Below, piece after piece: positions 2,133-63,793 of a DNA stretch of 64,000 bases; the first letter of the stretch is position 1; each line of letters opens with the position of its first letter. Made by a program: the position numbers and the translations under genes. Location of the stretch: the NCBI GenBank assembly GCA_026129685.1, contig JAHCHO010000003.1, positions 62,001 to 126,000 of the forward strand. The letters run 5' to 3'. This stretch comes from Fimbriimonadaceae bacterium (GTDB lineage: Bacteria; Armatimonadota; Fimbriimonadia; Fimbriimonadales; Fimbriimonadaceae). Under the pieces are notes generated by a model. It was not told where the DNA came from, ran no database searches, and worked only from the letters and a program-made list of their open reading frames with translations.

Positions 2133-3455
2133 ATGACGCGATGGATCGCACTGGTTGGGCTGGGGCTGACGGCGGTCGCCCGAGGCCAGATGTTCACCGA
2201 CGACGAACGGACGGGCGTCGTCGCCTACTGGAACGAACCGGGACGCTACCGGGCGGGCGCACCACCGGACTCGGTCAAGGCCGGGCCGTTCGGCGTACGG
2301 CTGACGGTGGACGGCTCGAAGTGGCTTTGGGACTACAACCGCGCGCGCGGCCTTTCGAAGGGTCCGCCGACCGAGACGCCGGGCGCCCAGAACCCGCGCG
2401 AGACGGTTTGGGAGGGGTGGATCGAGGCGAAAGTCGCGTACGACCGGTTCGTCGCGGCCGAAGGGGCCGACCGGGCGAACGCCGCCCTCGGCAAGCCCTC
2501 CAAACTGGCGTCGGGGCCGCGGCCCGCGCACCCCGGTCCTGTTCCCGCCGACCTCGTCACGCTGGTCGGCAACCCGCCGGCCTTTGCCTCGGTCGAGGCA
2601 CCCGTGTGGCACACGGTGACGTTCGACGACGGACTCGAGATCGCCTACGCCGACAACGTGTCGATGCGCCCCCGGTACGCCTACTATCGGTTCGACACGG
2701 GGGTCATGTCGGGCGGCGAGTCGGTACGCAACCTGCCCGAGCCCGATCTCAAAGCGCTTTGCGCGGAGGCGGGGTTGACCGAGTCCGAGTTTCGGATCTT
2801 CAAGGCGGTGTCGTTGCTTGAGGGCGGGTTCGACTCCGTGAACACGTACGACACCGGTTTCGTTTCGGTCGGTCTGTTGCAGTTCGCGAGCTTGAGCGAG
2901 GGGGGCGGGTCGCTCGCCTCGGTGCTCAGGAACCAGAAGATCGTCCACCCCGATTCGTTCTTCACCGACTGGCGGCGCTTCGGGCTCGACGTCACGGTGG
3001 ACGGCAAACTCGTCGCGGTGGACCCTGCGACCGGAGTCGAGGCGATCGGCCCGGAGGCCAACCGGCTGATCATTCGCGACAAGCGGCTCATCGCGGTGTT
3101 TCAGCGCAACGGCCGCATCAGCCGTCCCTTCCGTCTGGCTCAGTTGCGGGTGGCAAAGGCGCAGTACTACCCCGCCGACGACCAAGTGGCGGTCTACACG
3201 GGCACCGAGATCTGGACGGGCAAGATCCGGGACATCGTGCGCTCGGAGGCGGGGATGGCGACGCTGATGGACCGCAAGGTGAACACGGGTAAGGTGGACC
3301 CCCTCCCCGCCGTGCTGGCAAAAGTGGTCGAGGACAAGAAGTTGAAGGCGTTCGGCGACCTCGCGGAATACGAGGCGGAGGTGGTGGCGGCCCTGAGGTA
3401 CCGGAAGGACTACACGAAGGACCCCGCCCTTACCCAGCCCGGAAAAAGCCGATGA
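2133..3455 (+). CDS. Secreted protein with lysozyme-like domain
   Basis: A 440-residue exported protein. The first 19 residues (MTRWIALVGLGLTAVARGQ) form a signal peptide, and AGGAAG lies just before the ATG, which fixes the start over an upstream in-frame ATG at 2052. Around residues 220-260 is SLLEGGFDSVNTYDTG followed by SVGLLQFASL; a Glu (E230) in a helix followed by an aromatic-rich turn and a glutamine is the pattern of lysozyme-fold muramidases and phage-type peptidoglycan hydrolases. The N-terminal 200 residues are not recognised. It overlaps the following acetyltransferase by four bases (ATGA), so the two are co-translated. A cell-wall role is inferred, not proved. Confidence 0.7.
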   Translation: MTRWIALVGLGLTAVARGQMFTDDERTGVVAYWNEPGRYRAGAPPDSVKAGPFGVRLTVDGSKWLWDYNRARGLSKGPPTETPGAQNPRETVWEGWIEAKVAYDRFVAAEGADRANAALGKPSKLASGPRPAHPGPVPADLVTLVGNPPAFASVEAPVWHTVTFDDGLEIAYADNVSMRPRYAYYRFDTGVMSGGESVRNLPEPDLKALCAEAGLTESEFRIFKAVSLLEGGFDSVNTYDTGFVSVGLLQFASLSEGGGSLASVLRNQKIVHPDSFFTDWRRFGLDVTVDGKLVAVDPATGVEAIGPEANRLIIRDKRLIAVFQRNGRISRPFRLAQLRVAKAQYYPADDQVAVYTGTEIWTGKIRDIVRSEAGMATLMDRKVNTGKVDPLPAVLAKVVEDKKLKAFGDLAEYEAEVVAALRYRKDYTKDPALTQPGKSR

Positions 3456-4279
3456 GCGACCTGCGCGTCACCGATACCCAGTCATTTTCCGGGGCCGAGA
3501 TCGGGGCGCTCCTGGATCGTTGCTTCGAGGGCTACGCCGTGCCCACCCGGTTCACCCCGGAGATGGTCTCGGTTCTGGCGAGGACCGACTCGATCGATCC
3601 GGACAGGTCGCTCGTCGCATGGCGCGGGGAGGCACCGGTCGGGGTCGTCCTGTGGTGCCAGCGGGGCCGGCGCGTACGACTCGGGCCGACGGGGGTGGTG
3701 AAGGAGGCGAGGCGGCAAGGAGTCGGGCGTTTCCTCGTAGAGGAGTTCTTGCGGCGCGCGCGAGACGAGGGGGCGGAGCGGGTCCGTCTCGAGGTGCTGG
3801 GCGGCAACACGGGCGCGATCCAGTTGTACGAGGGCCAGGGGTTTCGGAGTCTGCGACGGCTGAACGGCTTCCGGGTGGACCCAGCGCGGCTGGAGATCGA
3901 ACCGTGGGAGGTCGAACCGTGGGAAGCCGAGGAGGTTGCGCTGATGATGGACCGACGACACCCGGACGCGCCCTGGCAACTGGAGGGCGAATCGGTGTTG
4001 GCTTTGCCGGAGACCTACCGGGCGGTGCGATTCGACAGCGCGCTGGCGATGGTCGCGGAGACGGAGACGCGCGGGGTGATCCGGGCCTGGACGACCGGAC
4101 GCAGCGCGGACGGGGTCGAGTGTGGGCATCGCCTTCTCAGTGGCCTGCTGTGCGCGGAGCCAAAGCGCACCTGGGTGTTCCCGCCGATCTACCCGTCCTC
4201 GGTGATCCGGCACGACTTCGAGCAGAGCGCGCTTATACGGGAAGCGCTGTTCCAGTACGAGATGGAATGGCGGCCGTGA
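3452..4279 (+). CDS. GNAT family N-acetyltransferase
   Basis: A 275-residue protein with one clear GNAT domain in residues 1-145: PVGVVLW, then the acetyl-CoA loop KEARRQGVGRFLVEEF, RVRLEVLGGNTGAIQLYEGQ and GFRSLRRLNGF. The remaining 130 residues (EPWEVEPWEAEEVALMMDRR onward) look like a degenerate second GNAT fold without an acetyl-CoA loop, as in many tandem GNAT proteins. Its ATG overlaps the stop of the lysozyme-like gene. Substrate cannot be read from sequence. Confidence 0.85.
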   Translation: MSDLRVTDTQSFSGAEIGALLDRCFEGYAVPTRFTPEMVSVLARTDSIDPDRSLVAWRGEAPVGVVLWCQRGRRVRLGPTGVVKEARRQGVGRFLVEEFLRRARDEGAERVRLEVLGGNTGAIQLYEGQGFRSLRRLNGFRVDPARLEIEPWEVEPWEAEEVALMMDRRHPDAPWQLEGESVLALPETYRAVRFDSALAMVAETETRGVIRAWTTGRSADGVECGHRLLSGLLCAEPKRTWVFPPIYPSSVIRHDFEQSALIREALFQYEMEWRP

Positions 4280-4328
4280 CCGGATCGCTTCGCCGGCCGC
4301 CCTTCTGACCCCGGGGGTCGCGGGCTTG

Positions 4329-5594
4329 TCACCCGGCGTCGACCACGAAGGCGGACGTCGGCCAGCGAGGGATGTCCGCCTCGGCGACGCCGAGTACCCG
4401 GATCACGTCGGCGCGGAACTCGTCGTAGTCCTCGGCGGTGCAAGGTCGCACGCCGTGGGCGAGGGCCGAATCGTTTCGCTTCTGCAGGTGCCCGCGCAGG
4501 CGCGCGTACTCTTCGTCGCGTCCCAACACTCGAAAGGCGCCTTCGACGCCCAGACGGAAGACGCCGTCTCGAGGCGGCCCGACGGTGGCGACGGCGATCG
4601 CGCGGGTCTCGGGGTCGAGGCCGTCTTCCTTCAGCTTGCCGAAATCCGCGCCAAAACGCTCGTGGAGGAGATCCTGAGCGTGCAACTCGCAGACGCGGTA
4701 GAGCAGGGCCACGGCCGCGTCGTACCTTCCTTGGGCGCGCCGACGGTCGGCGTTGGCCAGCCACTCGACGGCAAGTTGCGGGTTCTTGGCCGTCTGGGCG
4801 GCTCGGTTGGAGGTTATCTCGTTGGCCGCGCGCTGCCAGCCGTCTCTCAGACCGCTCCAAACCTGTGGGTTTGGGGCCACGAACGGGAACGCGGGGGTGC
4901 ACTTTGCGAGTTTCCGCGCCGCCCCGGCAAAGTCGAAGCCGTCGGCGAGGTCCAGGGCCTCGCAGAGGTCCGCGAAGAGCCGCAGTCGCTCGCCGACCGT
5001 GGGGCCGCATCGGCTCGCGGCGGCACGAAGGACCTGGGTCGCGGCCGCCGCAAGCGATCGGGCCAAGAGGCGCGCGGCTTCCTGTCGACTGAGATCGGCG
5101 AAGTAGTCCCAAGGGTTGGCGGCCTCGATCGGCGTTTCGCTACCCGTAAGGACGACTCCGACGCCGGCCTTGTCGCGGGCGCTGCCGCCCACGTAGCGGA
5201 AGTAGCGGAAGAGTTCGACGCCGGCGAGGACGAGGGCGGCGGTCATCGTTTTGGTCCCGCCCGTGTAGTCCACGATCGCGGCGCTCGGTTCGAGGCGATT
5301 GCGACGAAGCCAGTCCGGCAAGCCCGCTCGAATCTGGGCGTAGCAGATCAACAGGTCCTGGGGATCGGTCACCTCGAGGAACTCATACTGCGGAGCGTGG
5401 TCGAGCCTCGGGAGGATCGCGTCCGGCACGGAGTTCCTGGTCGCTTCGGAGACCACGAAGCACACCTTGTCCGGCCTGAGGTCGAGCAAGGAAGCGACGA
5501 CGGGCTCGGGCGAGCCACCCACGGAAGCCACCAAGGCGCGAATCCGATCCGGAGGCGGTTCGGTTAGGTTCGGTACGGTCCCTTCGGTTCCCAT
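4329..5594 (-). CDS. CRISPR-associated Cas02710 family protein (CARF-HEPN)
   Basis: A 421-residue protein. Residues 15-180 form a Rossmann-like CARF domain: LVASVGGSPEPVV at the start and the family hallmark DYTGGTKTM at 109-117, which in Csm6/Csx1-type proteins lines the cyclic oligoadenylate pocket. The C-terminal half is helical, with repeats of the type VEWLANADRRRAQGRYDAAV, and ends in a HEPN ribonuclease motif, RNDSALAH (R373, N374, H380). This matches the TIGR02710/Cas02710 family. The reading frame is open far upstream (to 7028), but that part lies antisense to glycerate kinase and is low-complexity; the ATG at 5594 gives the family's usual length. No cas genes, Cas10 or CRISPR array occur in the window, so the activating signal must come from elsewhere or differ. 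It is divergent from glycerate kinase. Confidence 0.88.
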   Translation of the reverse strand: MGTEGTVPNLTEPPPDRIRALVASVGGSPEPVVASLLDLRPDKVCFVVSEATRNSVPDAILPRLDHAPQYEFLEVTDPQDLLICYAQIRAGLPDWLRRNRLEPSAAIVDYTGGTKTMTAALVLAGVELFRYFRYVGGSARDKAGVGVVLTGSETPIEAANPWDYFADLSRQEAARLLARSLAAAATQVLRAAASRCGPTVGERLRLFADLCEALDLADGFDFAGAARKLAKCTPAFPFVAPNPQVWSGLRDGWQRAANEITSNRAAQTAKNPQLAVEWLANADRRRAQGRYDAAVALLYRVCELHAQDLLHERFGADFGKLKEDGLDPETRAIAVATVGPPRDGVFRLGVEGAFRVLGRDEEYARLRGHLQKRNDSALAHGVRPCTAEDYDEFRADVIRVLGVAEADIPRWPTSAFVVDAG

Positions 5595-5675
5595 GGCGCC
5601 TGTTTCGACCCCCCTTCGCCGTGTCCTCCCACGTCCTTCGGACGCGCCGCAGCACGACCGACCAGAATGGGAGCG

Positions 5676-6911
5676 ATGACGCGCGACGACCTGCTGGACA
5701 TCGCCCGTTCGGCGCTCGCGGCGACGGAGGCCGGAGCGTTGCTTCGCCGGGCGGTGAGTCGGGACGGCGATCGGTTGCGCTTCGGCGGGCGTTCCTACGA
5801 CCTTTGGGGTTTCGACCGGGTCCTGGTCGTCGCGGCGGGCAAGGCGGCGGGGGCGATGGTGGTGGCGTTGGAGCCTTTGCTCGAGGGGATGGCGTTCGGG
5901 GGGGTGGCGGTCACCAAGGCGGGTCACGCGCCGGTCGCGCCCACGAGGTCGCGGTTCTTGATCGGCGGGCACCCGGTGCCGGACGAGGGCTCGGTGGCGG
6001 CGGGACGGGCGGTCCGGAAATTGCTGGCGGGAGCGACGGCGCGCACTTTCGTGATCGGGCTGATCAGCGGCGGCGCGTCGGCGTTGCTCGAGGACCTGCG
6101 GCCGGGGGTCTCGTTGGAGTCGCTTCGCCTTGCCAATCGCGCGCTGCTGGGGTCGGGGGCACCGATCCAGGCGATCAACCGGGTGCGGGCACGGCTTTCG
6201 ACGATCAAGGCAGGAGGTCTGCTGGAAGCGACGGGCGAGGCGGAGGTCGTGGTGGCGGTGCTGTCCGACGTCCTGGGGGACGATCTGGCGGCGATCGGGT
6301 CTGGTCCGTTCGTTCCGGTTCGGGGAGACGGGAGCGCGGAAGAGGCGTTGCGGCAGTACCGGGTGGACTTGGGATTCGCGCTGCCCCCGGCAAGGGCGCG
6401 CGCCCCGCGAGAGACGCCGCCGCACGTCGTCATCGGCAACTTGGAGACCCTGTTGGCGGCGGCGGAAGGGCGGGCACGGGAACTCGGACTTGCCCCAAGC
6501 CGGGCGTCGTTCCCCTTGGTCGGCGAAGCGTCTTCGCTCCCGCCTCGGTTGCTGTCGGGAGGTCGGGGACTCTTGATTGCAGGGGGCGAGCCGACGGTCA
6601 CCCTCGGCGAAGACTTCGGCTGGGGCGGGCGGATGCAGGAGTTCGCCTTGGCGGCGGCCCCATTGCTCGAGGGGACGGAGAGCCTGGTTCTCGCGGCGGG
6701 AAGCGACGGTACCGACGGGCCGACGGACGCGGCCGGGGCGCTGGTGGACGGCGGGACGGTGGGCCGCATCCGGGCGGCAGGGCTCGACCCGTTGGCGTGC
6801 CTCCGGCGGCACGACGCGTACCCGGCGCTTCGGGCGTCGGGCGACCTGCTGTTCACGGGGCCCACGGGCACGAACGTCGGCGACCTCGTGCTGGCGTTCC
6901 GGGCTTCGTAA
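5676..6911 (+). CDS. Glycerate 2-kinase (MOFRL family)
   Basis: About 411 residues; an in-frame ATG three codons earlier (5667) is the alternative start. Glycerate 2-kinases of this family phosphorylate D-glycerate at C2 with ATP. Visible markers are AAGKAAGAMV and GGHPVPDEGS in the N-terminal domain, ISGGASALL (nucleotide/glycerate loop), TIKAGGL, LSDVLGDDLAAIGSGP, and the C-terminal MOFRL signature AAGSDGTDGPTDAAGALVD, ending in TGPTGTNVGDLVLAF. All family blocks are present. It is transcribed alone, divergently from the Cas02710 gene, and probably serves glyoxylate or serine degradation; that pathway assignment is inference. Confidence 0.92.
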   Translation: MTRDDLLDIARSALAATEAGALLRRAVSRDGDRLRFGGRSYDLWGFDRVLVVAAGKAAGAMVVALEPLLEGMAFGGVAVTKAGHAPVAPTRSRFLIGGHPVPDEGSVAAGRAVRKLLAGATARTFVIGLISGGASALLEDLRPGVSLESLRLANRALLGSGAPIQAINRVRARLSTIKAGGLLEATGEAEVVVAVLSDVLGDDLAAIGSGPFVPVRGDGSAEEALRQYRVDLGFALPPARARAPRETPPHVVIGNLETLLAAAEGRARELGLAPSRASFPLVGEASSLPPRLLSGGRGLLIAGGEPTVTLGEDFGWGGRMQEFALAAAPLLEGTESLVLAAGSDGTDGPTDAAGALVDGGTVGRIRAAGLDPLACLRRHDAYPALRASGDLLFTGPTGTNVGDLVLAFRAS

Positions 6912-7217
6912 CGGGCGCCCGGTGAAGCAGGGAGGCCACGAGGGACGGTTTGTGCCGGCGACCGGTGGGCTCGGGGTCGGGCCGCTCACGCGCCCCGTCC
7001 CCTTCGCCTCCCCGCCGCCGGCGCACAAGTGGACGCTCTAGAGCTTACGGGAGGGTTCCCCGATTGGTAGGAAGCGCCTGTGCGAGAGACCAGCGGCGCC
7101 TGCCACCTCCTCGCACATGGCTGGAACGGTCCGAGTGGCTACCTGGGAAAGTCCGGATCGCAGCCCCTAGCGTGCGTGGCCGCAAAGTCCAGTTGGGGAA
7201 TTCCCAAGCCCGGCTTC

Positions 7218-7246
7218 CGCAGCTTTGTCGCGCGCGTGGGCGGAAT
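7218..7246 (+). repeat. Diverged direct repeat, copy 1
   Basis: Twenty-nine bases beginning CGCAGCTT and ending GAAT. The second copy at 7279-7307 differs at five positions. The two copies flank the loop of a strong stem, so the unit may be part of an RNA fold rather than a mobile repeat. Confidence 0.6.
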
Positions 7247-7278
7247 CCTCGTGAGCCTGAGGGCCGAGGGGTCGCCCG

Positions 7279-7307
7279 CGCAGCTTCCTTGCGCACGTGG
7301 GCTGAAT
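7279..7307 (+). repeat. Diverged direct repeat, copy 2
   Basis: Second copy of the 29-base unit, beginning CGCAGCTT and ending GCTGAAT, starting 61 bases after the start of the first copy. No third copy was noticed in the window. Confidence 0.6.
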
Positions 7308-7509
7308 GGTGTGGGAGCGAGCTTCAAGTACAGGCAAGCGCGATACCGGATGAACCGGGCAGGGATCGGCCGCGATCGCGACGCGGCGGCCCATCGAACG
7401 GGGGGAACGACCCCATGGGCAACGTCAGGCTTCCGCCGAGGGTCCCTCCCCAACCGGCGCGACCCGGGTTACTGCAACCGGCGGTTCGCACAACGCTCGG
7501 AAGGGCTTG

Positions 7510-8964
7510 TCAGCCGCTTCCCAGCGCGGACTTGACGAAGGCGGCGACATCGTCGCGCAGGCGCTTCAGTTCGCCGACGTCGATGTACATCATGTGGCCA
7601 GCGCGGTAGTCGGCGGTCGTGACGCGGTCGCGCTGGGTCGGGTCGAGGCCGAGGTGGGCCAAGGTGTGGCGGGTGGCGAAGTAGGGGGTCGCGAGGTCGT
7701 AGAAGCCGGACGCGACGAACACCTTCATGTAGGGGTTCTTCGCGAAGGCGGTACGGAGGGCCTCGCTCGTGTCGGGATGCCCTTCCCCGGCGGATCCCCA
7801 GTCCCACGGTTTCTCGATTCCTTCACCCAGGATGTAGTAGGGGACGTCGGTCTTGTAGCCCAAGACGGTGCGGTAGTAGTGGTTCGCCATGGCGGTGTAG
7901 GGGGGCCGGATGGCGGTCATGCTCGGGTCGTGGTCGAAGCGCTCGCCGGTGTGCTTGCCGTCGATGCCTTTGAAGCGAGTGTCGAGGCGGCCCACCGTGC
8001 GCTTTTCGGAGCGGAGCAGTTCCTTGCAGAAGGCCATGATCTCGACGCGCAGGTCGCAGTTGTCGAGGTACTCCCGCGAGAGCCCGGTGTAGGCGGCGAG
8101 GCGGTCGATAACGCGCTTGCGGGCGGCGGGCTCGAGGCGGTCGCCCTTCTGAAGCGCGAGGAGGTAGTCGCCCGTGGCCCAGGCCTCAACTTCGCGAAGG
8201 GTGGCCTCCAGGTCGGCCTGGTATTTGGGGGCGAGTTTGCCGTGGTACCAGGCGGTGGCGGCGTAGGTCGGTAGGAACAGGACGTACGGCAGGTCGTTGC
8301 CCTTGACGAACCGGGCGGTGAGGAAGTTCAGGATGGAGGAGACGAGGAGGATGCCGTTGAAGGCGATCCCCTTTTCGACGAGGTAACCGGAGAGGCCGGC
8401 GGCGCGGGTGGTGCCGTAGCTCTCGCCGACGAGAAAGAGGGGGCTTTCCCAACGTTCGAACTTCGTGAGGAAGAGGCGGACGAACTCGGCGATGGACTCG
8501 ATGTCGCCCTTGACGCCCCAGAACTTGGGGCCGAGTTCCTCGGTTTCGGCGCGGCTGTAGCCGGTGCCGACAGGGTCGATGAAGACGAGGTCGGTATCGG
8601 CCAGCCAGGATTCGGGGTTGAACTCAAGCTCGTAGGGCGGGGCGGGCATCGCGCCGTCGTCGAGCATCTTGACGCGGTAGGGCCCGAGGGCGCCGAAATG
8701 GAGCCAGACCGAGGCGGAGCCAGGGCCACCGTTGAAGGAGAACATGAGGGGTCGGCGCTCGCCGGGCCGACGTTCCTTCTTCTGGTAGGCGACGAAGAAC
8801 ACGCGGGCCTCGGTCTCTTCCTTGGCGTTCTTGAGTTCCAGCCGGCCGGTGGTGGCGGTGTAGGCGAAGACCTTGCCCGCCAGTTCGACGGTGTGTTCGG
8901 TGACGATGGGATCGGGTTCGGGCGGCTTTGGCGCGGGCTTGTCTTTGGTCTCCGGGTCGGCCAT
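7510..8964 (-). CDS. Serine carboxypeptidase, peptidase family S10
   Basis: A 484-residue alpha/beta-hydrolase of family S10, which removes C-terminal residues from peptides at acid pH in characterised members. The oxyanion-hole loop FNGGPGSAS is at 77-85, the nucleophile S182 is in GESYGTTR, the acid D423 in SGFYDLATPY and the base H457 in AGHMMYI, so the triad is complete. FIDPVGTGYS is also conserved. There is no signal peptide: the N-terminus is a proline- and lysine-rich run (MADPETKDKPAPKPPEPDP), which is unusual for a family that is mostly secreted or vacuolar. Length agrees with the bacterial S10 group. A -10-like TAATCT ends 7 bases before the ATG. Confidence 0.93.
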   Translation of the reverse strand: MADPETKDKPAPKPPEPDPIVTEHTVELAGKVFAYTATTGRLELKNAKEETEARVFFVAYQKKERRPGERRPLMFSFNGGPGSASVWLHFGALGPYRVKMLDDGAMPAPPYELEFNPESWLADTDLVFIDPVGTGYSRAETEELGPKFWGVKGDIESIAEFVRLFLTKFERWESPLFLVGESYGTTRAAGLSGYLVEKGIAFNGILLVSSILNFLTARFVKGNDLPYVLFLPTYAATAWYHGKLAPKYQADLEATLREVEAWATGDYLLALQKGDRLEPAARKRVIDRLAAYTGLSREYLDNCDLRVEIMAFCKELLRSEKRTVGRLDTRFKGIDGKHTGERFDHDPSMTAIRPPYTAMANHYYRTVLGYKTDVPYYILGEGIEKPWDWGSAGEGHPDTSEALRTAFAKNPYMKVFVASGFYDLATPYFATRHTLAHLGLDPTQRDRVTTADYRAGHMMYIDVGELKRLRDDVAAFVKSALGSG

Positions 8965-23376: not shown

Positions 23377-25821
23377 TCAGTCGGTGGTCAAACCCCCGAG
23401 GTCGAGCACGTCCAGGGCCATCTCCGGGGGGGCGTCGGTCAGCACGGTGGCGCGGGTCGTTGGATCGCGTTTCAGGTAGAGGCAACGGTCGGCCACCTGG
23501 TTGATCTCCTCGATGTGGCTGATGACGACCATCTGTGTGAACCGGGTCTTGAGGGCGGAAAGTCGGTCCATCACGTGCTGGCGACGCTCGGAATCGAGCG
23601 ACCCGAACACCTCGTCGAGGATCAGGAGGGTCATGGGCATGCCGTGGCGCTCCTGGATCAGTTCGCTCAAGGCGAGGCGCAGGGCCAGGGCGACGACGTC
23701 CTCCTCGCCACCGGAGATCACGCCCTTGGCGACGTTGTCATCCTCCACCACGGTGGGGGAGAAGCTCTCGTCCAGTCTGAGGGTGCGGTACCGGCCCCCG
23801 GTAAGCAGGTCCAGGTTCTCGCCGGCGCGATACTCGAGTTGGGGCCGGAGTTCGAGGTTCAGCCGCTCGCGGAGGCGATTCAGTTCCTTGCGGGTCTGGG
23901 CGAGATGCTTGGACTCGGAGGCGAGGGCCTCGTGCCGAAGCTTTCGCTCGCGATTCGTCTCGATCTCCTTCTTCGCCCGGTCCACGTCCTGTTGGGCGTG
24001 CGCGACCCTCTCCCCGTGCCCTTTGATCTCGGCGTCCTTGAGCTTCAGTTCGGTGTCCCGCTGACGGAACGCCTCGCGGGCGGCGTCGGCGGCATCGCGG
24101 CTCTCGAACCCCAGTTCGCTCTGCTTGGCGAGGAGATCGTCGGCCTTCGCCTTCAGGGCAGCGAACTCGGCCTTCTTGGCGGCTTGGAGTTGCCGGTTCA
24201 GGGCGAGCCGCTCGGCGGCGCCGGCGAAGGAAAGGCGGCGGTCGCGCAGGGGGCGAATGTCGGTAAGGCGCGTAAGGACGGCTTTGTGGTCGGTTTCGTC
24301 GTAGGCGACCGGCTCGCCGAGGTCCGCTTCGAGCTTGGAGAGCCGGTTACGCTCTGCCTCAACGAGGGTGAGGTGCGTCGTGCGGTCGGCGTGCCGCTTT
24401 GCCGCTTCTTCGTGAGCCGATTGGGCGCGCCGGAAGGCTTCTTCGGCGGCCTTCTCGGCGGCTTCGGCGGCGGTCACTTGGTCGGGAACCCGGTCGGCTT
24501 CCTTGGCGGCCTTCTCGCCCTCGGCCATCTTGTCGGCGATCACGGAGAGTTCCGCCTCGTGGGCCAGGACGTGCGCCTCGAAGTCGTCGCCGATCGGTTG
24601 GCGGCAGGTGGGGCACTTGCCTTGACGAACCAGATCTTTAGCCCGGTCGAGGCTCGCCTTGGCGGCCTGGTACCGGGTCCGGGCCTCGATGGCGGCGTTC
24701 GAGGCGGCCTTCTTCGCTTCGGCCCACGCTTCCCGGCTCGCCCGATGGGCGGCGCGGGCGGCGGTGAGCGCGGCGGTCGCTTGGGCGACCCCGTCCTTGG
24801 CGGCCTCCGCGTCGGAGGCGGGCAGTTTGGCGAGGACGGCTTCAAGATCGGTCAGCGTTTTGCGCGTCGCTTGGACGTCCTGCTCCACCTTCTGGCGTCG
24901 GCGGAACGCCTCGCCCAGCGTCGCAAACTCCTTGTTCCGGGTCTCCAGGGCTTCGAACTCGACGACCACGGGCGCCAGGCGTTCGAACTCGGCGACCTCC
25001 TCGGCGCCTTTCGCCTCGTCTTTGGCGAGGGCTTCGAGGTTGTCGGCGATCGCGCGTCCGTCGCGGCGAATGTCGTTCAGTTGCTCGAGGAAGCCGAGCC
25101 ACTTGGCGGCCCGGGCATCGCCCTCTCGGGCGGCTTCGAGCGCCTCCGCGAGCGCCTTGCGGCCCTCCGCGAGCGTCTTTTCGTCGGCCCGCAGTTGGGC
25201 GTGAGCGGCCTGGGCTTCTTTGAGAGCAGCGGCGAGTTCGGCGTCTTCGCGCAGGGCCTCGGAGAGTCCCTTCGCCTGGGCTTCCACCTGCTTCTGACGG
25301 TCCTTGGCGGTCTCGGCGGCGTCCTTCAGCCGGTCGTAGCCGAGCATCTTGGCGATTTCGTCCTGCCGCCCTTGAGCGTTCTTGTCGGCGAGGAAGGCGA
25401 GGGCCTTCTGCTCGGCGCAGAACGAGTTCACGAACTGCTCGTGGGTGAGACGAAGAAGGGATTCGACCTTCGCCTTCACGTCGCTGATGCTCGTGGCGAC
25501 GTGCTTGAGCTTGGGGCCGTCCCCATCGTCCACCACGGTGGACAGGTTCGCGTCGTTCTCGCGGCGCTCGATCGTCCACCGCTTGTCCTCGAGTTCGAAG
25601 ACCAGAGTGACCTTCGCGACCTGGCGGCCGCCGCTCCAGAAGAAGCGAACGTCGTCCTTCGTGCCGCGCTTCTTGCCGTAGAGGGCGAACAGGATGGCCT
25701 CGACGACGGTCGATTTGCCGGTGCCATTCGGGCCGACGATCGCGATCATGCCGTCGCGAAAGGCGATCTCGGTCGATTTGTGCTGGCGAAAGTTCTCGAG
25801 CTTGAGACTAACGAGCCGCAT
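23377..25821 (-). CDS. sbcC: SbcC/Rad50-type DNA repair ATPase
   Basis: An 814-residue SMC-like ATPase that, with SbcD, opens and trims DNA ends and hairpins. Walker A GPNGTGKST is at 30-38. Two long alanine/glutamate-rich coiled coils enclose the zinc hook CPTCRQPIGD (C403, C406). The C-terminal part has the signature ISGGEEDVVALALRLALSEL and Walker B LLILDEVFGSLD. The length is in the Rad50 range and shorter than E. coli SbcC. Its ATG lies 14 bases inside the 3' end of sbcD. Confidence 0.95.
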   Translation of the reverse strand: MRLVSLKLENFRQHKSTEIAFRDGMIAIVGPNGTGKSTVVEAILFALYGKKRGTKDDVRFFWSGGRQVAKVTLVFELEDKRWTIERRENDANLSTVVDDGDGPKLKHVATSISDVKAKVESLLRLTHEQFVNSFCAEQKALAFLADKNAQGRQDEIAKMLGYDRLKDAAETAKDRQKQVEAQAKGLSEALREDAELAAALKEAQAAHAQLRADEKTLAEGRKALAEALEAAREGDARAAKWLGFLEQLNDIRRDGRAIADNLEALAKDEAKGAEEVAEFERLAPVVVEFEALETRNKEFATLGEAFRRRQKVEQDVQATRKTLTDLEAVLAKLPASDAEAAKDGVAQATAALTAARAAHRASREAWAEAKKAASNAAIEARTRYQAAKASLDRAKDLVRQGKCPTCRQPIGDDFEAHVLAHEAELSVIADKMAEGEKAAKEADRVPDQVTAAEAAEKAAEEAFRRAQSAHEEAAKRHADRTTHLTLVEAERNRLSKLEADLGEPVAYDETDHKAVLTRLTDIRPLRDRRLSFAGAAERLALNRQLQAAKKAEFAALKAKADDLLAKQSELGFESRDAADAAREAFRQRDTELKLKDAEIKGHGERVAHAQQDVDRAKKEIETNRERKLRHEALASESKHLAQTRKELNRLRERLNLELRPQLEYRAGENLDLLTGGRYRTLRLDESFSPTVVEDDNVAKGVISGGEEDVVALALRLALSELIQERHGMPMTLLILDEVFGSLDSERRQHVMDRLSALKTRFTQMVVISHIEEINQVADRCLYLKRDPTTRATVLTDAPPEMALDVLDLGGLTTD

Positions 25822-29373: not shown

Positions 29374-30525
29374 TCAGCGGATGGCCGCTTCGGTCTGCTT
29401 GTCGAAGAGGTGGATGGCGTCGAGGTTCACGATGAACTGGCTCGGCGAGTTCTCCTTGATCCTGGTGCCCGTGTCGATCGAGGCGAGCATGTTGTGCGGT
29501 CCCGCCGCGAGATAGACGACGTACTGGTGGCCGAGGGGTTCGATCACGTCGACTTTGGCGTCGAAGGTGTTGACGCCCTGGACGGTCGCGACCGGGTTGT
29601 TCATGGCGGCGTCGTAGATGTCCTCGGGTCGGATACCGAGCACGATCTCTTTGCCAACCATTGCCGCCGCCGGGTGGCTCGCGGGCAACGGCAACACGAA
29701 GGCTCCGGTGTCGACGACCGCCTTGCCGCCGTCTTCACGGATCGTGGCGCCGAGGAAGTTCATGGGCGGGGAGCCGATGAACCCGGCGACGAACCGATTC
29801 GCGGGGGACTTGTAGACCACGTCCGGGGTGTCGCACTGCTGCAAGATGCCGTCCTTCATGATGGCGATGCGCTGACCCATCGTCATCGCCTCGACCTGGT
29901 CGTGGGTCACGTAGATCGTCGTGATGCCGAGGGATCGGTGCAGGCGGATGAGTTCGGCGCGGGTCTGGATGCGAAGCTTGGCGTCGAGGTTCGACAGCGG
30001 CTCGTCCATGAGGAAGACTTTGGGCTTGCGGACGATGGCGCGCCCGAGGGCGACGCGCTGGCGCTGGCCGCCGGAGAGTTCCTTCGGACGACGGTGAAGC
30101 AACTGCTCGATGCCGAGCATGGTCGCGGCCTCCCGCACGCGAGCGTCGATGTCCTGCTTGATCTGCTTGGCGTCTCCCATGTGGGTGAGCTGCCAGAAAA
30201 AGCCCTTCAACTCGCGCAGACGCAGGCCGAACGCGATGTTGTCGTAGACGTTCATGTGCGGGTACAGCGCGTAGTTTTGGAAAACCATCGCGATGTCCCG
30301 ATCTTTCGGCGGAACGTCGTTGACCCGGACGTCGTTGATCACGATGTCCCCACCGGTGGCCTCCTCCAGCCCGGCGATCATACGCAGGGCGGTGGTCTTG
30401 CCACAGCCGGATGGGCCGACGAGGACCATGAACTCCTTGTCTCGAATCTCGAGATTCAGATCGTTGACGGCGAAAACGTCTTTGCCGAAGACCTTGGTTA
30501 CGTTCCTAAATGCAACGGCGGCCAC
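29374..30525 (-). CDS. ugpC: Sugar ABC transporter ATPase, UgpC/MsmK/MalK type
   Basis: A 383-residue ATPase. Walker A GPSGCGKTT, Q-loop NYALYPHMNVYDNI, signature LSGGQRQRVALGRAI, Walker B VFLMDEPLSNLDAKL and switch His in IYVTHDQVEAM are complete. The C-terminal 140 residues are the TOBE/MalK regulatory domain (LGIRPEDI). Such ATPases often power several sugar importers, and no permease or binding protein lies beside it. It starts with GTG, with a full AGGAGGT ribosome site 8 bases upstream. A TATACT -10 is at 30554-30559 on the minus strand. Confidence 0.94.
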   Translation of the reverse strand: MAAVAFRNVTKVFGKDVFAVNDLNLEIRDKEFMVLVGPSGCGKTTALRMIAGLEEATGGDIVINDVRVNDVPPKDRDIAMVFQNYALYPHMNVYDNIAFGLRLRELKGFFWQLTHMGDAKQIKQDIDARVREAATMLGIEQLLHRRPKELSGGQRQRVALGRAIVRKPKVFLMDEPLSNLDAKLRIQTRAELIRLHRSLGITTIYVTHDQVEAMTMGQRIAIMKDGILQQCDTPDVVYKSPANRFVAGFIGSPPMNFLGATIREDGGKAVVDTGAFVLPLPASHPAAAMVGKEIVLGIRPEDIYDAAMNNPVATVQGVNTFDAKVDVIEPLGHQYVVYLAAGPHNMLASIDTGTRIKENSPSQFIVNLDAIHLFDKQTEAAIR

Positions 30526-54589: not shown

Positions 54590-54859
54590 ATGGGCCTGAA
54601 CATCAAGAACCCGGAAGTGGAACGGTTGATCTCCGAGGTGGCGGCCAAGACCGGGGAGACCAAGACGGCGACGGTCCGCCGAGCCATGCTGTTGCTCAAG
54701 GAGCAGGTATCACCGGAAGCAAGTTCAGGCGAGCGTCGCCTCCGACTCAAGACTTTTCTCGAGGAGCATTGGCGGAGCCTTCCGGCAGAACTGCTTGGGC
54801 GTACGATCACCAAGGAAGAGCGCGAGGAGTATCTCGGGTACGGACCTGATGGCGTCTAG
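54590..54859 (+). CDS. vapB: VapB-type antitoxin
   Basis: An 89-residue protein. The N-terminal GLNIKNPEVERLISEVAAKT followed by GETKTATVRRAMLLL is the ribbon-helix-helix part of the Rv0623-like VapB family; the C-terminal 40 residues (LKTFLEEHWRSLPAELLGRT) would wrap the toxin. Its 3' end overlaps the toxin start by 11 bases, the usual coupling. It should neutralise the neighbouring PIN-domain ribonuclease. Confidence 0.9.
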   Translation: MGLNIKNPEVERLISEVAAKTGETKTATVRRAMLLLKEQVSPEASSGERRLRLKTFLEEHWRSLPAELLGRTITKEEREEYLGYGPDGV

Positions 54860-55256
54860 ATGCGTTTTGGACTCCTCGGCCGTGGTCGCCGCCCTCTACG
54901 AGGAGTCCCGGCGCCAAGCGGCGTTCGAGGCGCTGGACCGTGCCACTCAGATTCTGGTGCCCGCCTCGGTGCTGCTCGAATCGACGATCGTCGCGGTCGG
55001 CCACGGCGGTTCGGAGGGCGCAGCCGCCGTCCGGCGGCTGCTCGAAGAAGCGCACGCGGAGATCATCCCCATTGACCATTCTCAGGCGGAGTCGGCGATT
55101 CAAGCGTTCCTCCAGTTCGGAAAGGGGCGGCATCCGGCGCGGCTGAACTTTGGGGACTGCATGGTGTACGCGCTCGCCAAAACCCGTCGGTTGCCGATCC
55201 TCTGCACGGGCGACGACTTCAGCAAGACGGACATCGAGGTCGTGCCCCTCGCCTGA
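54849..55256 (+). CDS. vapC: VapC-type toxin (PIN ribonuclease)
   Basis: A 135-residue PIN-domain protein. The acidic metal residues are D8 (VLDSSAVVA), E44 (LLESTIV), D103 (NFGDCMVYALA) and D122/D123 (CTGDDFSKT). This is the Rv0624-like VapC pattern with RLNFGDC. The start at 54849 follows the vapB overlap; an upstream in-frame ATG (54795) is inside vapB. VapC toxins cut tRNA or rRNA at defined sites; the target is not predictable. A tRNA-Lys gene lies 80 bases downstream, with no sign of a link. Confidence 0.93.
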   Translation: MASRCVLDSSAVVAALYEESRRQAAFEALDRATQILVPASVLLESTIVAVGHGGSEGAAAVRRLLEEAHAEIIPIDHSQAESAIQAFLQFGKGRHPARLNFGDCMVYALAKTRRLPILCTGDDFSKTDIEVVPLA

Positions 55257-60033: not shown

Positions 60034-61989
60034 GTGCATACAGCCCAGGAACCCGTTTCGATCGAGGAGGCCGTGCGTCGCCTAAGCGCGACCTCGCCGG
60101 CCGTTCCCCTGCTCGCACTCGGGCAGACGGTGTTCTGGGACGAGACGGTCAAGGCGGGGGTCGCCTTGGCGGCCGAGCGGACGGGATTGCCTTACTTCGC
60201 GGGCGTCCACGACACCGACTACTTCGCCAAGTTGCCCGGGGCCGAACGGGGCGCGCAGGGGTACCGGGCGTTCCCGCACAACGACCATTCCACCAAGGGG
60301 CTTTGGAGCGCGGCGGGCGAGTTCTCGGCCCTCTTCGGCTCGGAGACGGTGGTGCGGCGCGAGGCGCTGCAAGCGGCGGGGGTCAAGCTCGAGCGCATCG
60401 CCCTTTCGCGCCCGGGCATTCTGGACGAGGCCACCGAAGCGTGGGGCTGGCGAGGGATCGTTTCGCTCAGCGAGGACCCTCCGATCGCCGGAGAAGTGCC
60501 ACTCGGCGACGTGTTCACCGAGCTCCGGTCCACCTTTGATTGGGCGCTCGAATCGAGCCTGGCCAGCTTCGCTAGCGACCGGCGCCGGGCGGCGGGCGCG
60601 AGGGCGGACGGTCTACGCGACCTGGTGAACCAGACGCGAGACAGGTTGCCGCACGGCACCCTCGGGGATTTCTACGAAGCCCTGATCGAGCCGATGTACG
60701 CCCGCACGGCGTCAGGGCCGGTGCCTCTCCAGACCACGCGGACCTCCCGGCTCCTTCGGTTCAACCGGTCGACGTGCCGCTTGCCGCGTTTCCAAACCCT
60801 GGATCTCTTTCTTCGACCCGAGACGGCGGAGGCGGCAAGGGCGGCGTACGACGAGGCGATCGCCGGGTCCGAGATGTACGCGCTCGAACGATTCGGGACC
60901 TGCGCCATCCCGTTCGACCTGATCGTGCCGGGGCGAGGGCGCGGGACGCTCAGGGTCGGCCCGAACGGCGTCGTCGTCATGGCCCGAAAACCCCTGTTCG
61001 TCACCCTGGAGGAGCCGGTTCGCAGCGTCGAGGATCTCGCGGCGGCAGTCGAGGGCAAGTTCGGGCCCGGCTGTACCGTGGTCGGGAAAGCGGTGACGCT
61101 CATCGGGATGCTGGCGCGGGAGTTCGCGTTCGTCTTTCACGAAGGGGCGAGCGGCTACGTCTGGCGCAGTCGCGGACTGCACCAACGACTCCGAGCGCTC
61201 GATCCGTCGCTCGACTTCAACCCGATCTTGCGCGTGCGCTACGAAACGTGGGACGCGCTGGGCGCCTGCAAGACGTGGTTCTCGTTACCAGAGCCGTTCC
61301 GGCGACCGTTTGGGGCCGACGACGTGTACGCGCCCACCTTCGCCGCCCGCTGGCGGGAGGTCGTCGAGGACCAAGCCGGCTTCCTGACCCGCCTTGGCGC
61401 GCTTCGCCGCCCGATCGAGCTGATACGCTTCCTGGCGGAGTATTCCGGAGGCGGATGGGCGAGTCTGGCCCGGGAGTACGAGGCGCTACACGACGGCTTG
61501 GAGCGGCTGCGCGAGACGATCGACGGGTTTCGCGCCGAGCGTCGGGGGGTCTACGATAAGATTCGGGCTTTGCGAGGGCAGCGGGTGGCGGCGGAGGCGG
61601 CCAAGGGGGCGCACTTCCGCGATCGCGTTTTCGAGCGAGAACCCACGGAGGAGGACCTCGTCGAGCGGACGCGCCTTACGGGCGAGGTCGAAGCGATCGT
61701 CCATCGCCTGGGCGAGCAGCTTCACCGGTTGCACGAATCCTGGCGCCGCCAACGGGAGTTCGTGACGCGGGAAGAGGTGCGCGCGATGCACGAAAGGCGA
61801 CGCATCATCGAACTCGAAGCGGAACTTAAGCGACTCCGGTTGGCCCGCCAGGGGCTGATCGTGCACCACGGGCTGAAATCTTCGAACCGGCGACCGAGCG
61901 GCTGGTGGTTCCCGCTGCTGTGCCCCGAGGGCAAGTGGTTCCACGAGACGATGCGGACCGCGACCGCGTACCTGGAGCCGCTCCAGTGA
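60034..61989 (+). CDS. Conserved-looking unknown protein, possible distant BshC relative
   Basis: A 651-residue soluble protein I cannot name. The N-terminal third has VPLLALGQTVFWDETVKAGV, then RTGLPYFAGVHDTDYFAKLP; the order 'GQT ... HDTDYF' recalls the GQQ ... SEDHDF blocks of bacillithiol ligase BshC, but other BshC motifs were not recognised. The middle (residues about 230-440) is mixed. A long charged helical part (ERRGVYDKIRALRGQRVAAE, EAELKRLRLARQGLIVHHGL) precedes a short end with GWWFPLLCPEGKWF. It overlaps dapF by four bases (GTGA). Function unassigned. Confidence 0.6.
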   Translation: MHTAQEPVSIEEAVRRLSATSPAVPLLALGQTVFWDETVKAGVALAAERTGLPYFAGVHDTDYFAKLPGAERGAQGYRAFPHNDHSTKGLWSAAGEFSALFGSETVVRREALQAAGVKLERIALSRPGILDEATEAWGWRGIVSLSEDPPIAGEVPLGDVFTELRSTFDWALESSLASFASDRRRAAGARADGLRDLVNQTRDRLPHGTLGDFYEALIEPMYARTASGPVPLQTTRTSRLLRFNRSTCRLPRFQTLDLFLRPETAEAARAAYDEAIAGSEMYALERFGTCAIPFDLIVPGRGRGTLRVGPNGVVVMARKPLFVTLEEPVRSVEDLAAAVEGKFGPGCTVVGKAVTLIGMLAREFAFVFHEGASGYVWRSRGLHQRLRALDPSLDFNPILRVRYETWDALGACKTWFSLPEPFRRPFGADDVYAPTFAARWREVVEDQAGFLTRLGALRRPIELIRFLAEYSGGGWASLAREYEALHDGLERLRETIDGFRAERRGVYDKIRALRGQRVAAEAAKGAHFRDRVFEREPTEEDLVERTRLTGEVEAIVHRLGEQLHRLHESWRRQREFVTREEVRAMHERRRIIELEAELKRLRLARQGLIVHHGLKSSNRRPSGWWFPLLCPEGKWFHETMRTATAYLEPLQ

Positions 61990-62909
61990 CCCACGGCCTT
62001 CCGTTCGTCAAGGCGCAGTCCATCGGCAACGACTTCGTGCTGGTTCGAACCGAGGAACTCGAGCGGTGCCTCGCCCGGACGGATCGGGCGCTCGCGGACG
62101 TCGTACGGGCGCTTTGCTCCCGACGATTCGGCGTCGGGAGCGACGGCCTGCTCGCCTACCGCGTCGAGGGTGAAATCGTCCATCAGCGCATGTTCAACCC
62201 GGACGGCACGGAGGACTTCTGCGGCAACGGCTTGCGCTGCACCGCCGCCCGGGCGTTCCGGGAGCGGGAGGTGCCGCGCGAATTCACGTTTCACCATCTT
62301 GGGTTGAAGGTCCCCTGCATCGTAACCCGGAACGGCTACGTGCGCACGACGCTGGCGGCGGCCCGGTGGCGGGCGGAGGAGGTCCCCGTCCTTGCCGACC
62401 CAAGGCCGCGGCCCGCCAACCTGGAAGGACTCGTCGACTCGCTCGAAGGATGCGGACCCGAGCCGATGCAGACGCGAACCGTCGACGTCCCCACCTCTCG
62501 CGGACAAACCGAGGTAACGCTGATCGCGGTCAACACGGGCAGCACCCACGCCGTTGTCTTTGTGGACGAGTTGCCCGGCGACCCGTGGTTCACCGAAGCG
62601 AGCGCCCAGATCGAAGTCCATCCCTTGTTCCCCGAACGGACGAGCGTGATCTGGACGCGGGTGGAGCGTCGGAACGTGCTGCGCCTGCGCATCTGGGAAC
62701 GGGGGGCGGGCGAAACCTTGGGTTGCGGTACGGGATCGGCCGCCGCGGCGGTCGCCTATCTGCGTCGAACGGGACGCTGGGGACACGGCCGGGTCCGCGT
62801 ACACAACCCGGGCGGAAGCCTGACCTTTGACCTTCCGGAGGGATGGTCGGGGCCGGTCACGTCGATCGGGCGCGCGGAGACCCTCTTCGAGGGAGTCTGG
62901 ACCGGCTAA
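61986..62909 (+). CDS. dapF: Diaminopimelate epimerase
   Basis: A 307-residue PLP-independent epimerase converting LL- to meso-diaminopimelate for lysine and peptidoglycan. The catalytic cysteines are C79 in FNPDGTEDFCGNGLRC and C247 in ETLGCGTGSAAAAV. KAQSIGNDFVLV near the start binds substrate. It begins with a GTG that overlaps the previous stop. It is in an operon with the unknown gene and perhaps with thyX, although thyX has its own -10-like element overlapping the dapF stop. Confidence 0.95.
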   Translation: MTHGLPFVKAQSIGNDFVLVRTEELERCLARTDRALADVVRALCSRRFGVGSDGLLAYRVEGEIVHQRMFNPDGTEDFCGNGLRCTAARAFREREVPREFTFHHLGLKVPCIVTRNGYVRTTLAAARWRAEEVPVLADPRPRPANLEGLVDSLEGCGPEPMQTRTVDVPTSRGQTEVTLIAVNTGSTHAVVFVDELPGDPWFTEASAQIEVHPLFPERTSVIWTRVERRNVLRLRIWERGAGETLGCGTGSAAAAVAYLRRTGRWGHGRVRVHNPGGSLTFDLPEGWSGPVTSIGRAETLFEGVWTG

Positions 62910-62912
62910 AAT
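62907..62912 (+). promoter_or_regulatory. -10-like TAAAAT before thyX
   Basis: TAAAAT includes the dapF TAA and ends 8 bases before the thyX ATG at 62921. It would allow an extra leaderless thyX transcript. Confidence 0.45.
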
Positions 62913-62920
62913 CCCCAGGC

Positions 62921-63793
62921 ATGGCAAGGATCGTCGTCCCTGAAGCGGAAGCGCTGCTCGACCAGGAGATTCCCGTCCTCGACAAGGGGTTCGTCCGTCT
63001 CGTGGACTACCTCGGCGGCGACGCCCGGATCGTGCAGGCGGCGCGCGTGAGCTACGGTGAGGGCACCAAAACCTTTCGTCAAGATCGGGGCCTCATCCAT
63101 TATCTTGTCCGCAACGAGCACACCTCGCCCCTCGAGCAGGTGATCCTCACTTTTCACGCCAAGATGCCGATTTTCGTCGCTCGCCAGTGGGTACGGCACC
63201 GAACGGCGCGCCTCAACGAGATTTCCGGGCGCTACAGCGTGATGAAGGACGAGTTTTACGTCCCGGACCCGAACCAGGTCCGCTTTCAGAGCGCGTCGAA
63301 CAAGCAGGGCCGAAGCGAGGAAGCCCTCGCCGAGGCCGACGTGACGGAGATCCTGGACGAATGGACGGAAGACCATCGGACGATCTACGCCCACTACCAG
63401 GCGATGCTCGACAAGGGAATGGCGCGCGAACTCGCCCGCGCCAACTTGCCTCTCGCCACCTACACCGAGTGGTACTGGCAGATCGACCTTCACAATCTGT
63501 TCCGGTTCCTGCGTCTGCGGATGGACCCGCACGCCCAGTACGAGATTCGGGCCTACGGCGAAGCCCTCTCCCGGTGCGCGAAGGCGGTCGCGCCGATCGC
63601 CTATGAGGCGTTCGAGGAGCATCTCCAGTGTTGCGTCAAGTTTTCCCGTGAAGAGGGGGCGGCCCTGCTCGCGCTTCTCGACGGACGCGAAAGTTCACTC
63701 GAGGGCCGGGCGAAGCAGCTGTTCGAGGAGAAGTTGGCGGCCCTGCGGGCGCGCACCGGGGTCGGGTTCGACGCGCAGGCGCCGGAAGGCTAG
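62921..63793 (+). CDS. thyX: FAD-dependent thymidylate synthase
   Basis: A 290-residue ThyX, which makes dTMP from dUMP with methylene-tetrahydrofolate and FAD/NADPH. The family signature RHRTARLNEISGRYS starts at R92 and S102 completes RHRx7S. Other blocks: EHTSPLEQV, FVARQWVRH, LPLATYTEWYWQIDLHNLF. The ATG at 62921 gives a normal N-terminus. The organism may lack ThyA, but the window does not show that. Confidence 0.96.
   Translation: MARIVVPEAEALLDQEIPVLDKGFVRLVDYLGGDARIVQAARVSYGEGTKTFRQDRGLIHYLVRNEHTSPLEQVILTFHAKMPIFVARQWVRHRTARLNEISGRYSVMKDEFYVPDPNQVRFQSASNKQGRSEEALAEADVTEILDEWTEDHRTIYAHYQAMLDKGMARELARANLPLATYTEWYWQIDLHNLFRFLRLRMDPHAQYEIRAYGEALSRCAKAVAPIAYEAFEEHLQCCVKFSREEGAALLALLDGRESSLEGRAKQLFEEKLAALRARTGVGFDAQAPEG

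What the first reader, a model, noticed from the sequence alone, without database searches (positions are those of the whole stretch)
4329..5594. Orphan Cas02710 (CARF-HEPN) ribonuclease with no CRISPR locus nearby
DYTGGTKTM and the RNDSALAH HEPN motif are both intact, so the protein should bind a cyclic oligoadenylate-like ligand and cut RNA. Its neighbours are glycerate kinase and a GNAT enzyme. Either it responds to a Cas10 made elsewhere in the genome or it belongs to a signalling system without CRISPR.
Basis: partly seen in the sequence, partly recalled or inferred. Interest (0 to 1): 0.6.

Follow-up and report, generated by a model that had tools for sequence, protein, structure and literature searches.

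The report
Unlinked CRISPR type III alarm ribonuclease
This gene encodes an RNA-cutting enzyme of a known kind that is switched on by the alarm molecule of type III CRISPR systems; it lies far from any CRISPR locus, but the same genome carries two such systems that can make the alarm, so it is most likely an ordinary effector working at a distance.

Summary
In detail: window 4329-5594 (minus) encodes an intact 421-aa CARF-HEPN protein, a full-length TIGR02710 member, with no cas gene or CRISPR array in the window or found elsewhere on its 478-kb contig. It is not a CRISPR-free orphan. The genome has two type III-B (Cmr) loci on other contigs, each with a Cas10 that keeps GGDD and shows no HD domain, plus CRISPR arrays. 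In the phylum, 20 of 21 PF09670-positive genomes carry Cas10 or Cas RAMP genes; 36 of 38 homologue loci of 15 kb or more carry type III genes. A characterised family member, TTHB144 of Thermus thermophilus, is a cA4-activated ribonuclease. Its tested pocket lysine and catalytic histidine are conserved here, as are the HEPN residues of the nearest solved structure, T. thermophilus Csm6. Best reading: a cA4-activated, dimeric HEPN ribonuclease acting in trans for the host's own type III-B systems. Effectors acting between loci have been proposed before, so this is a new member of a known kind. One mild oddity: the window gene and its relatives in the same family are all unlinked, the intact ones lack a near-invariant Asp/Arg pair, and one host genome shows no Cas10, RAMP or Cas1.

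The parts
4329..5594 (-). TIGR02710 (Cas02710) CARF-HEPN gene, 421 aa, single-gene unit
   Evidence: Open frame; TIGR02710 188 bits; PF09670; AlphaFold2 model pLDDT 90.3, pTM 0.84
5118..5543 (-). CARF (ligand-sensing) domain, about residues 18-159
   Evidence: Structural match to CARF domains of Cam1, Can2/Card1, Cad1 and TtCsm6 over this range
5244..5270 (-). CARF motif DYTGGTKTM (residues 109-117); K115 aligns with TTHB144 K94
   Evidence: G113, T114, K115 and M117 invariant in 55 homologues; alignment with TTHB144
4776..5111 (-). Helical linker between CARF and HEPN, about residues 162-273
   Evidence: Secondary structure of the model
4401..4775 (-). HEPN ribonuclease domain, residues 274-398
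   Evidence: PF09670, E 1.8e-20
4455..4478 (-). HEPN catalytic motif RNDSALAH (R-X6-H, residues 373-380)
   Evidence: R 53/55, N 55/55, H 55/55; matches TtCsm6 R415, N416, H422 (PMC10897365)

Best explanation
The gene encodes a homodimeric CARF-HEPN ribonuclease that works as a trans-acting effector of the host's own type III-B CRISPR systems. A crRNA-guided Cmr complex from the C11 or C15 locus recognises invader RNA. Its Cas10 GGDD palm then makes cyclic oligoadenylate, most likely cA4. The ligand binds the CARF dimer (K115 beneath it), and the signal passes through the helical linker to the HEPN pair, freeing R373, N374 and H380 to cut single-stranded RNA non-specifically. The CARF may also cleave cA4 slowly, as TTHB144 does, but this copy has G27-S28 where TTHB144 has T10-T11, so self-limitation may be altered. 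Shown here: family membership, conserved residues, fold, cyclase-competent Cas10s and CRISPR arrays in the same genome. Inferred: cA4 as ligand, RNase activity, dimerisation, and coupling to these particular Cas10s.
For: TIGR02710 match. A family member, TTHB144 (TTH_RS10730 on pTT27; T10/T11, K94 and H368 checked in its sequence; TIGR02710 519 bits), is an experimentally shown cA4-activated RNase and cA4-degrading enzyme (PMC6599890); 29% identity to the window protein. K94 corresponds to K115 and H368 to H380. The model's best solved matches are T. thermophilus Csm6 structures, led by the cA4-bound form, Z 21.9; R415, N416, H422 and E332 of TtCsm6 correspond to R373, N374, H380 and E303 (PMC10897365). 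Two III-B loci with GGDD Cas10s and 34 CRISPR repeats in the same genome. Phylum co-occurrence: 16 of 21 PF09670 genomes have a clear Cas10 against 54 of the other 270 (Fisher p 2e-7, not corrected for phylogeny), and 4 of the remaining 5 have RAMPs. Homologue loci: 56 of 80 with type III genes and 14 more with cas1/cas2; 36 of 38 among loci of 15 kb or more.
Against: No physical link to either cas locus, and no biochemical test. At least one other CARF-HEPN-like gene already sits at the C11 locus (L090 18558-19874). The protein lacks D293 and R297, near-invariant in the family, although active TtCsm6 appears to lack them too. Genome G149 keeps an intact relative but shows no Cas10, RAMP or Cas1.
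Confidence: 0.8

Rival explanations
1. It is a CARF-HEPN ribonuclease that has left CRISPR control and answers a non-CRISPR nucleotide signal or a housekeeping ligand.
For: The window gene and its relatives in G147 and G149 form one clade (SH-aLRT 99), and all are unlinked from cas genes in the stretches read; in three species of genus g31 they sit at one shared chromosomal site with dN/dS about 0.31 between two of them. G149 (95% complete) shows no Cas10, RAMP, Cas1, mCpol or SMODS.
Against: The window genome, G147 and G148 all have Cas10; G149 is a fragmented MAG in which a cas locus can be missing. The CARF pocket motif is fully kept. The only other cyclase family found in the window genome, a SMODS enzyme on C13, is followed by a TIR-SAVED gene.
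Confidence: 0.08
2. It is activated by the genome's CBASS-like cyclase (SMODS on C13) rather than by Cas10.
For: A SMODS cyclase is present in the genome.
Against: An adjacent TIR-SAVED gene looks like that cyclase's own effector; the three g31 genomes have no SMODS match; the family tracks type III genes.
Confidence: 0.03
3. It is a decaying or inactive remnant left behind by a lost type III locus.
For: Unlinked, with D293/R297 lost; the relative in G148 has a frameshift in the HEPN region.
Against: The window gene is intact with all catalytic and pocket residues; relatives in G147 and G149 show purifying selection (dN/dS about 0.31); TtCsm6 also appears to lack the D/R pair.
Confidence: 0.07

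Closest known systems
TTHB144 of Thermus thermophilus HB8 (TIGR02710 family)
   Same: Same NCBIfam equivalog; same CARF-HEPN layout; K94 and H368, essential in TTHB144, correspond to K115 and H380
   Different: 29% identity; TTHB144 lies near cas1, cas2 and cas10 on a plasmid, this gene is unlinked on a 478-kb contig; T10/T11 of TTHB144 are G27/S28 here; D293/R297 absent here
T. thermophilus Csm6 (TTHB152; PDB 5fsh, 8jbb, 8jh1)
   Same: Best structural match (Z 21.9); same HEPN residues and CARF lysine; cA4-activated in experiment
   Different: About 20% identity; a different family branch; encoded in its own type III CRISPR locus
Inter-locus cOA signalling proposed by Hoikkala et al. 2024 (PMC11229360)
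   Same: Cyclase-positive, HD-lacking Cas10 loci thought to act through effectors encoded elsewhere; the C15 locus fits
   Different: That study proposed effectors at another locus in the genome, looking at type III loci; this one lies outside any cas locus

Membership tests
TIGR02710 / Cas02710 CARF-HEPN family | Full-length match above the curated cut-off | tested here: met
   188.1 bits against 83.9, profile 2-380 of 384
TIGR02710 / Cas02710 CARF-HEPN family | CARF motif with invariant lysine | tested here: met
   DYTGGTKTM, K115
TIGR02710 / Cas02710 CARF-HEPN family | HEPN R-X4-6-H motif | tested here: met
   R373 to H380, R-X6-H
TIGR02710 / Cas02710 CARF-HEPN family | Near-invariant D293 and R297 of the HEPN helix (seen here in the alignment, not a published or defining criterion) | tested here: not met
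   A and L here; T and C in the two intact g31 relatives
Type III CRISPR ancillary effector (functional class) | Cyclase-competent Cas10 in the same genome | tested here: met
   Two Cas10s with GGDD
Type III CRISPR ancillary effector (functional class) | Encoded in or next to the type III locus (usual, not required) | tested here: not met
   Gene on C12, loci on C11 and C15
Type III CRISPR ancillary effector (functional class) | Activated by cyclic oligoadenylate | not testable with these tools
   Needs biochemistry; relative TTHB144 is cA4-activated (PMC6599890)
Csm6-2 (fused CARF-HEPN-CARF-HEPN) | Tandem fusion of about 795 aa | tested here: not met
   Single CARF-HEPN of 421 aa (definition in PMC11229360)
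Panoptes-like mCpol signalling (named from memory) | Stand-alone mCpol cyclase in the genome | tested here: not met
   Only a sub-cut-off match, at the C11 Cas10 itself

The most novel reading that the evidence does not exclude
A lineage of TIGR02710 CARF-HEPN ribonucleases in this bacterial family has become a stand-alone chromosomal sensor, kept under selection at sites away from cas genes and able to persist without any Cas10 (as the G149 genome suggests), answering a signal other than type III cyclic oligoadenylate.
Probability: 0.07. Interest if true: 0.55.

Novelty: new member of a known kind. Interest (0 to 1): 0.2.

Why it matters
It is a clear case of a type III effector encoded far from any Cas10, in a genome where one III-B locus (C15) shows no effector of its own within the stretch read. 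That makes the idea of effectors shared in trans testable, and it warns that surveys limited to a few kilobases around cas operons miss such effectors. The biology itself is expected.

Tried and rejected
A sequence search with the single protein against solved structures gave nothing; the profile and the fold search were needed. Csm6-2 was considered and rejected on architecture. Carriage by phages: no match in the phage collection; plasmid matches are Thermus, Rhodothermus and Synechocystis. A clean empty site in genus mates could not be shown: genes on either side match DNA in G140/G141 and 3416-7521 does not, but the flanking genes lie on different contigs there. The glycerate kinase is rare in the family (5 of 41 genomes), so the neighbourhood is not a conserved partner set. 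The search terms Cas02710 and TIGR02710 found no paper in the library, and the 2020 CARF classification paper is not held.

Full report
Observation. The minus-strand frame 5594-4329 is intact and encodes 421 aa. It is a full-length TIGR02710 protein with an HEPN domain of PF09670 and CARF-HEPN/Csx1 matches in PADLOC. It is the only PF09670 match in the 3.94-Mb genome, 99% complete. The quoted motifs are present and sit at conserved columns of 55 homologues. The plus-strand ORF across the same DNA (4326-5567) is a by-product of high G+C, since the minus-strand frame carries the family match. The gene converges with a GNAT gene and diverges from a glycerate-kinase-like gene with a 72-base gap, so it is probably transcribed alone (sequence).

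Where the signal could come from. The genome has two Cas10 genes and six RAMP matches, on contigs C11 and C15. I read both loci and identified genes by PADLOC and Pfam. C11: reverse transcriptase and cas2 on the minus strand, then cmr1, cas10, cmr3, cmr4, cmr5, cmr6 and cas1, followed by a minus-strand CARF-HEPN-like gene. C15: cmr1, cas10, cmr3 to cmr6, with no cas1 and no CARF gene recognised in the stretch read. Cmr4 to Cmr6 are named from order, RAMP matches and local profiles. Both Cas10s keep GGDD and are short (558 and 543 aa) with no HD domain found. Thirty-four copies of one 35-base repeat lie on C11, in arrays at 24004-24665 and 61354-62943 plus a single copy at 29946. So the gene is unlinked, but the genome has what is needed to make the ligand.

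Association at large. Of 80 homologue loci from public genomes, 56 contain type III genes and 14 more contain cas1 or cas2; of the 38 loci of 15 kb or more, 36 contain type III genes. These were found with local profiles seeded from this genome, so other cas subtypes may be missed. In the phylum, 21 of 291 genomes have PF09670; 16 of these have a clear Cas10 (I counted matches over about 40 bits, since weaker ones look like GGDEF proteins), against 54 of the other 270. Four of the remaining five have RAMPs. The exception is G149, which has two PF09670 proteins, one above the TIGR02710 cut-off and one below, and shows no Cas10, RAMP, Cas1, mCpol or SMODS. It is a 95% complete assembly in about 140 contigs, so absence is not proven.

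Mechanism. T. [quoted passage not shown] K94A abolishes both and H368A abolishes RNase only (PMC6599890). I confirmed that the annotated gene has T10, T11, K94 and H368. K115 and H380 are the counterparts here. The AlphaFold2 model (pLDDT 90.3) matches T. thermophilus Csm6 best, the cA4-bound form first (Z 21.9, 376 residues, rmsd 6.1); the large rmsd probably reflects domain movement. The HEPN residues R415, N416, H422 and E332 of TtCsm6 (PMC10897365) are R373, N374, H380 and E303 here. T10-T11 of TTHB144 is G27-S28 here; the T10A/T11A mutant stays an RNase but degrades cA4 about 12-fold slower, so self-limitation here is uncertain.

A lineage detail. The window protein groups with those of G147 and G149 (same family, different genus) at SH-aLRT 99, on long branches; it is a quick tree, so long-branch effects are possible. 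These three, and no other member of the 55, have lost both D293 and R297. In genus g31 the gene sits at one shared non-cas site in three genomes; two copies are intact with dN/dS about 0.31, the third has a frameshift in the HEPN region, which could be an assembly error.

Alternative cyclases. The genome also has a SMODS enzyme on C13 followed by a TIR-SAVED gene, a CBASS-like pair with its own receptor. No stand-alone mCpol was found.

Known context. Hoikkala et al. 2024 reported 133 cyclase-positive type III loci without effectors and proposed signalling to effectors encoded elsewhere (PMC11229360); they inspected operons plus or minus 4 kb. This gene fits that proposal. It is a new member of a known kind.

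Noticed in passing
L090 18558-19874 (C11:48557-49873, minus): A 438-aa CARF protein beside the C11 III-B locus, PADLOC Csx1/Csm6 75 bits, no Pfam match. Its C-terminal HEPN motif is unclear by eye, so it may be a divergent or inactive effector.
   Followed up: partly
L090 1632-2774 (C11:31631-32773, plus): A 380-aa protein with a CARF-like N-terminus by eye (SSGTP) and no Pfam, PADLOC or NCBIfam match, about 7 kb from the C11 cas genes. Possibly an undescribed effector family.
   Followed up: partly
L090 9529-10664 (C11): A separate reverse transcriptase gene next to cas2, divergent from the cmr operon, with cas1 at the operon's far end: possible RNA spacer acquisition.
   Followed up: no
L091 11491-11634 (C11:61490-61633): Two consecutive repeat-spacer units in the CRISPR array are identical over 72 bases, a duplicated spacer.
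   Followed up: no
L154 8986-11628 (C13:18985-21627): SMODS nucleotide cyclase followed by a TIR-SAVED gene, a CBASS-like pair.
   Followed up: partly
G149 (L119, L126): Two CARF-HEPN genes but no Cas10, RAMP or Cas1 match in a 95% complete genome.
   Followed up: partly
L121 8662-11040 (G176): A TIGR02710 gene followed directly by a TIGR02619 CARF gene (putative CRISPR-associated protein, perhaps a ring nuclease), on a contig other than that genome's RAMP genes: a second case of an unlinked type III signalling module.
   Followed up: partly
window 54590-55256: A PSK-type antitoxin-like gene followed by a PIN-domain gene, a VapBC-like pair.
   Followed up: partly
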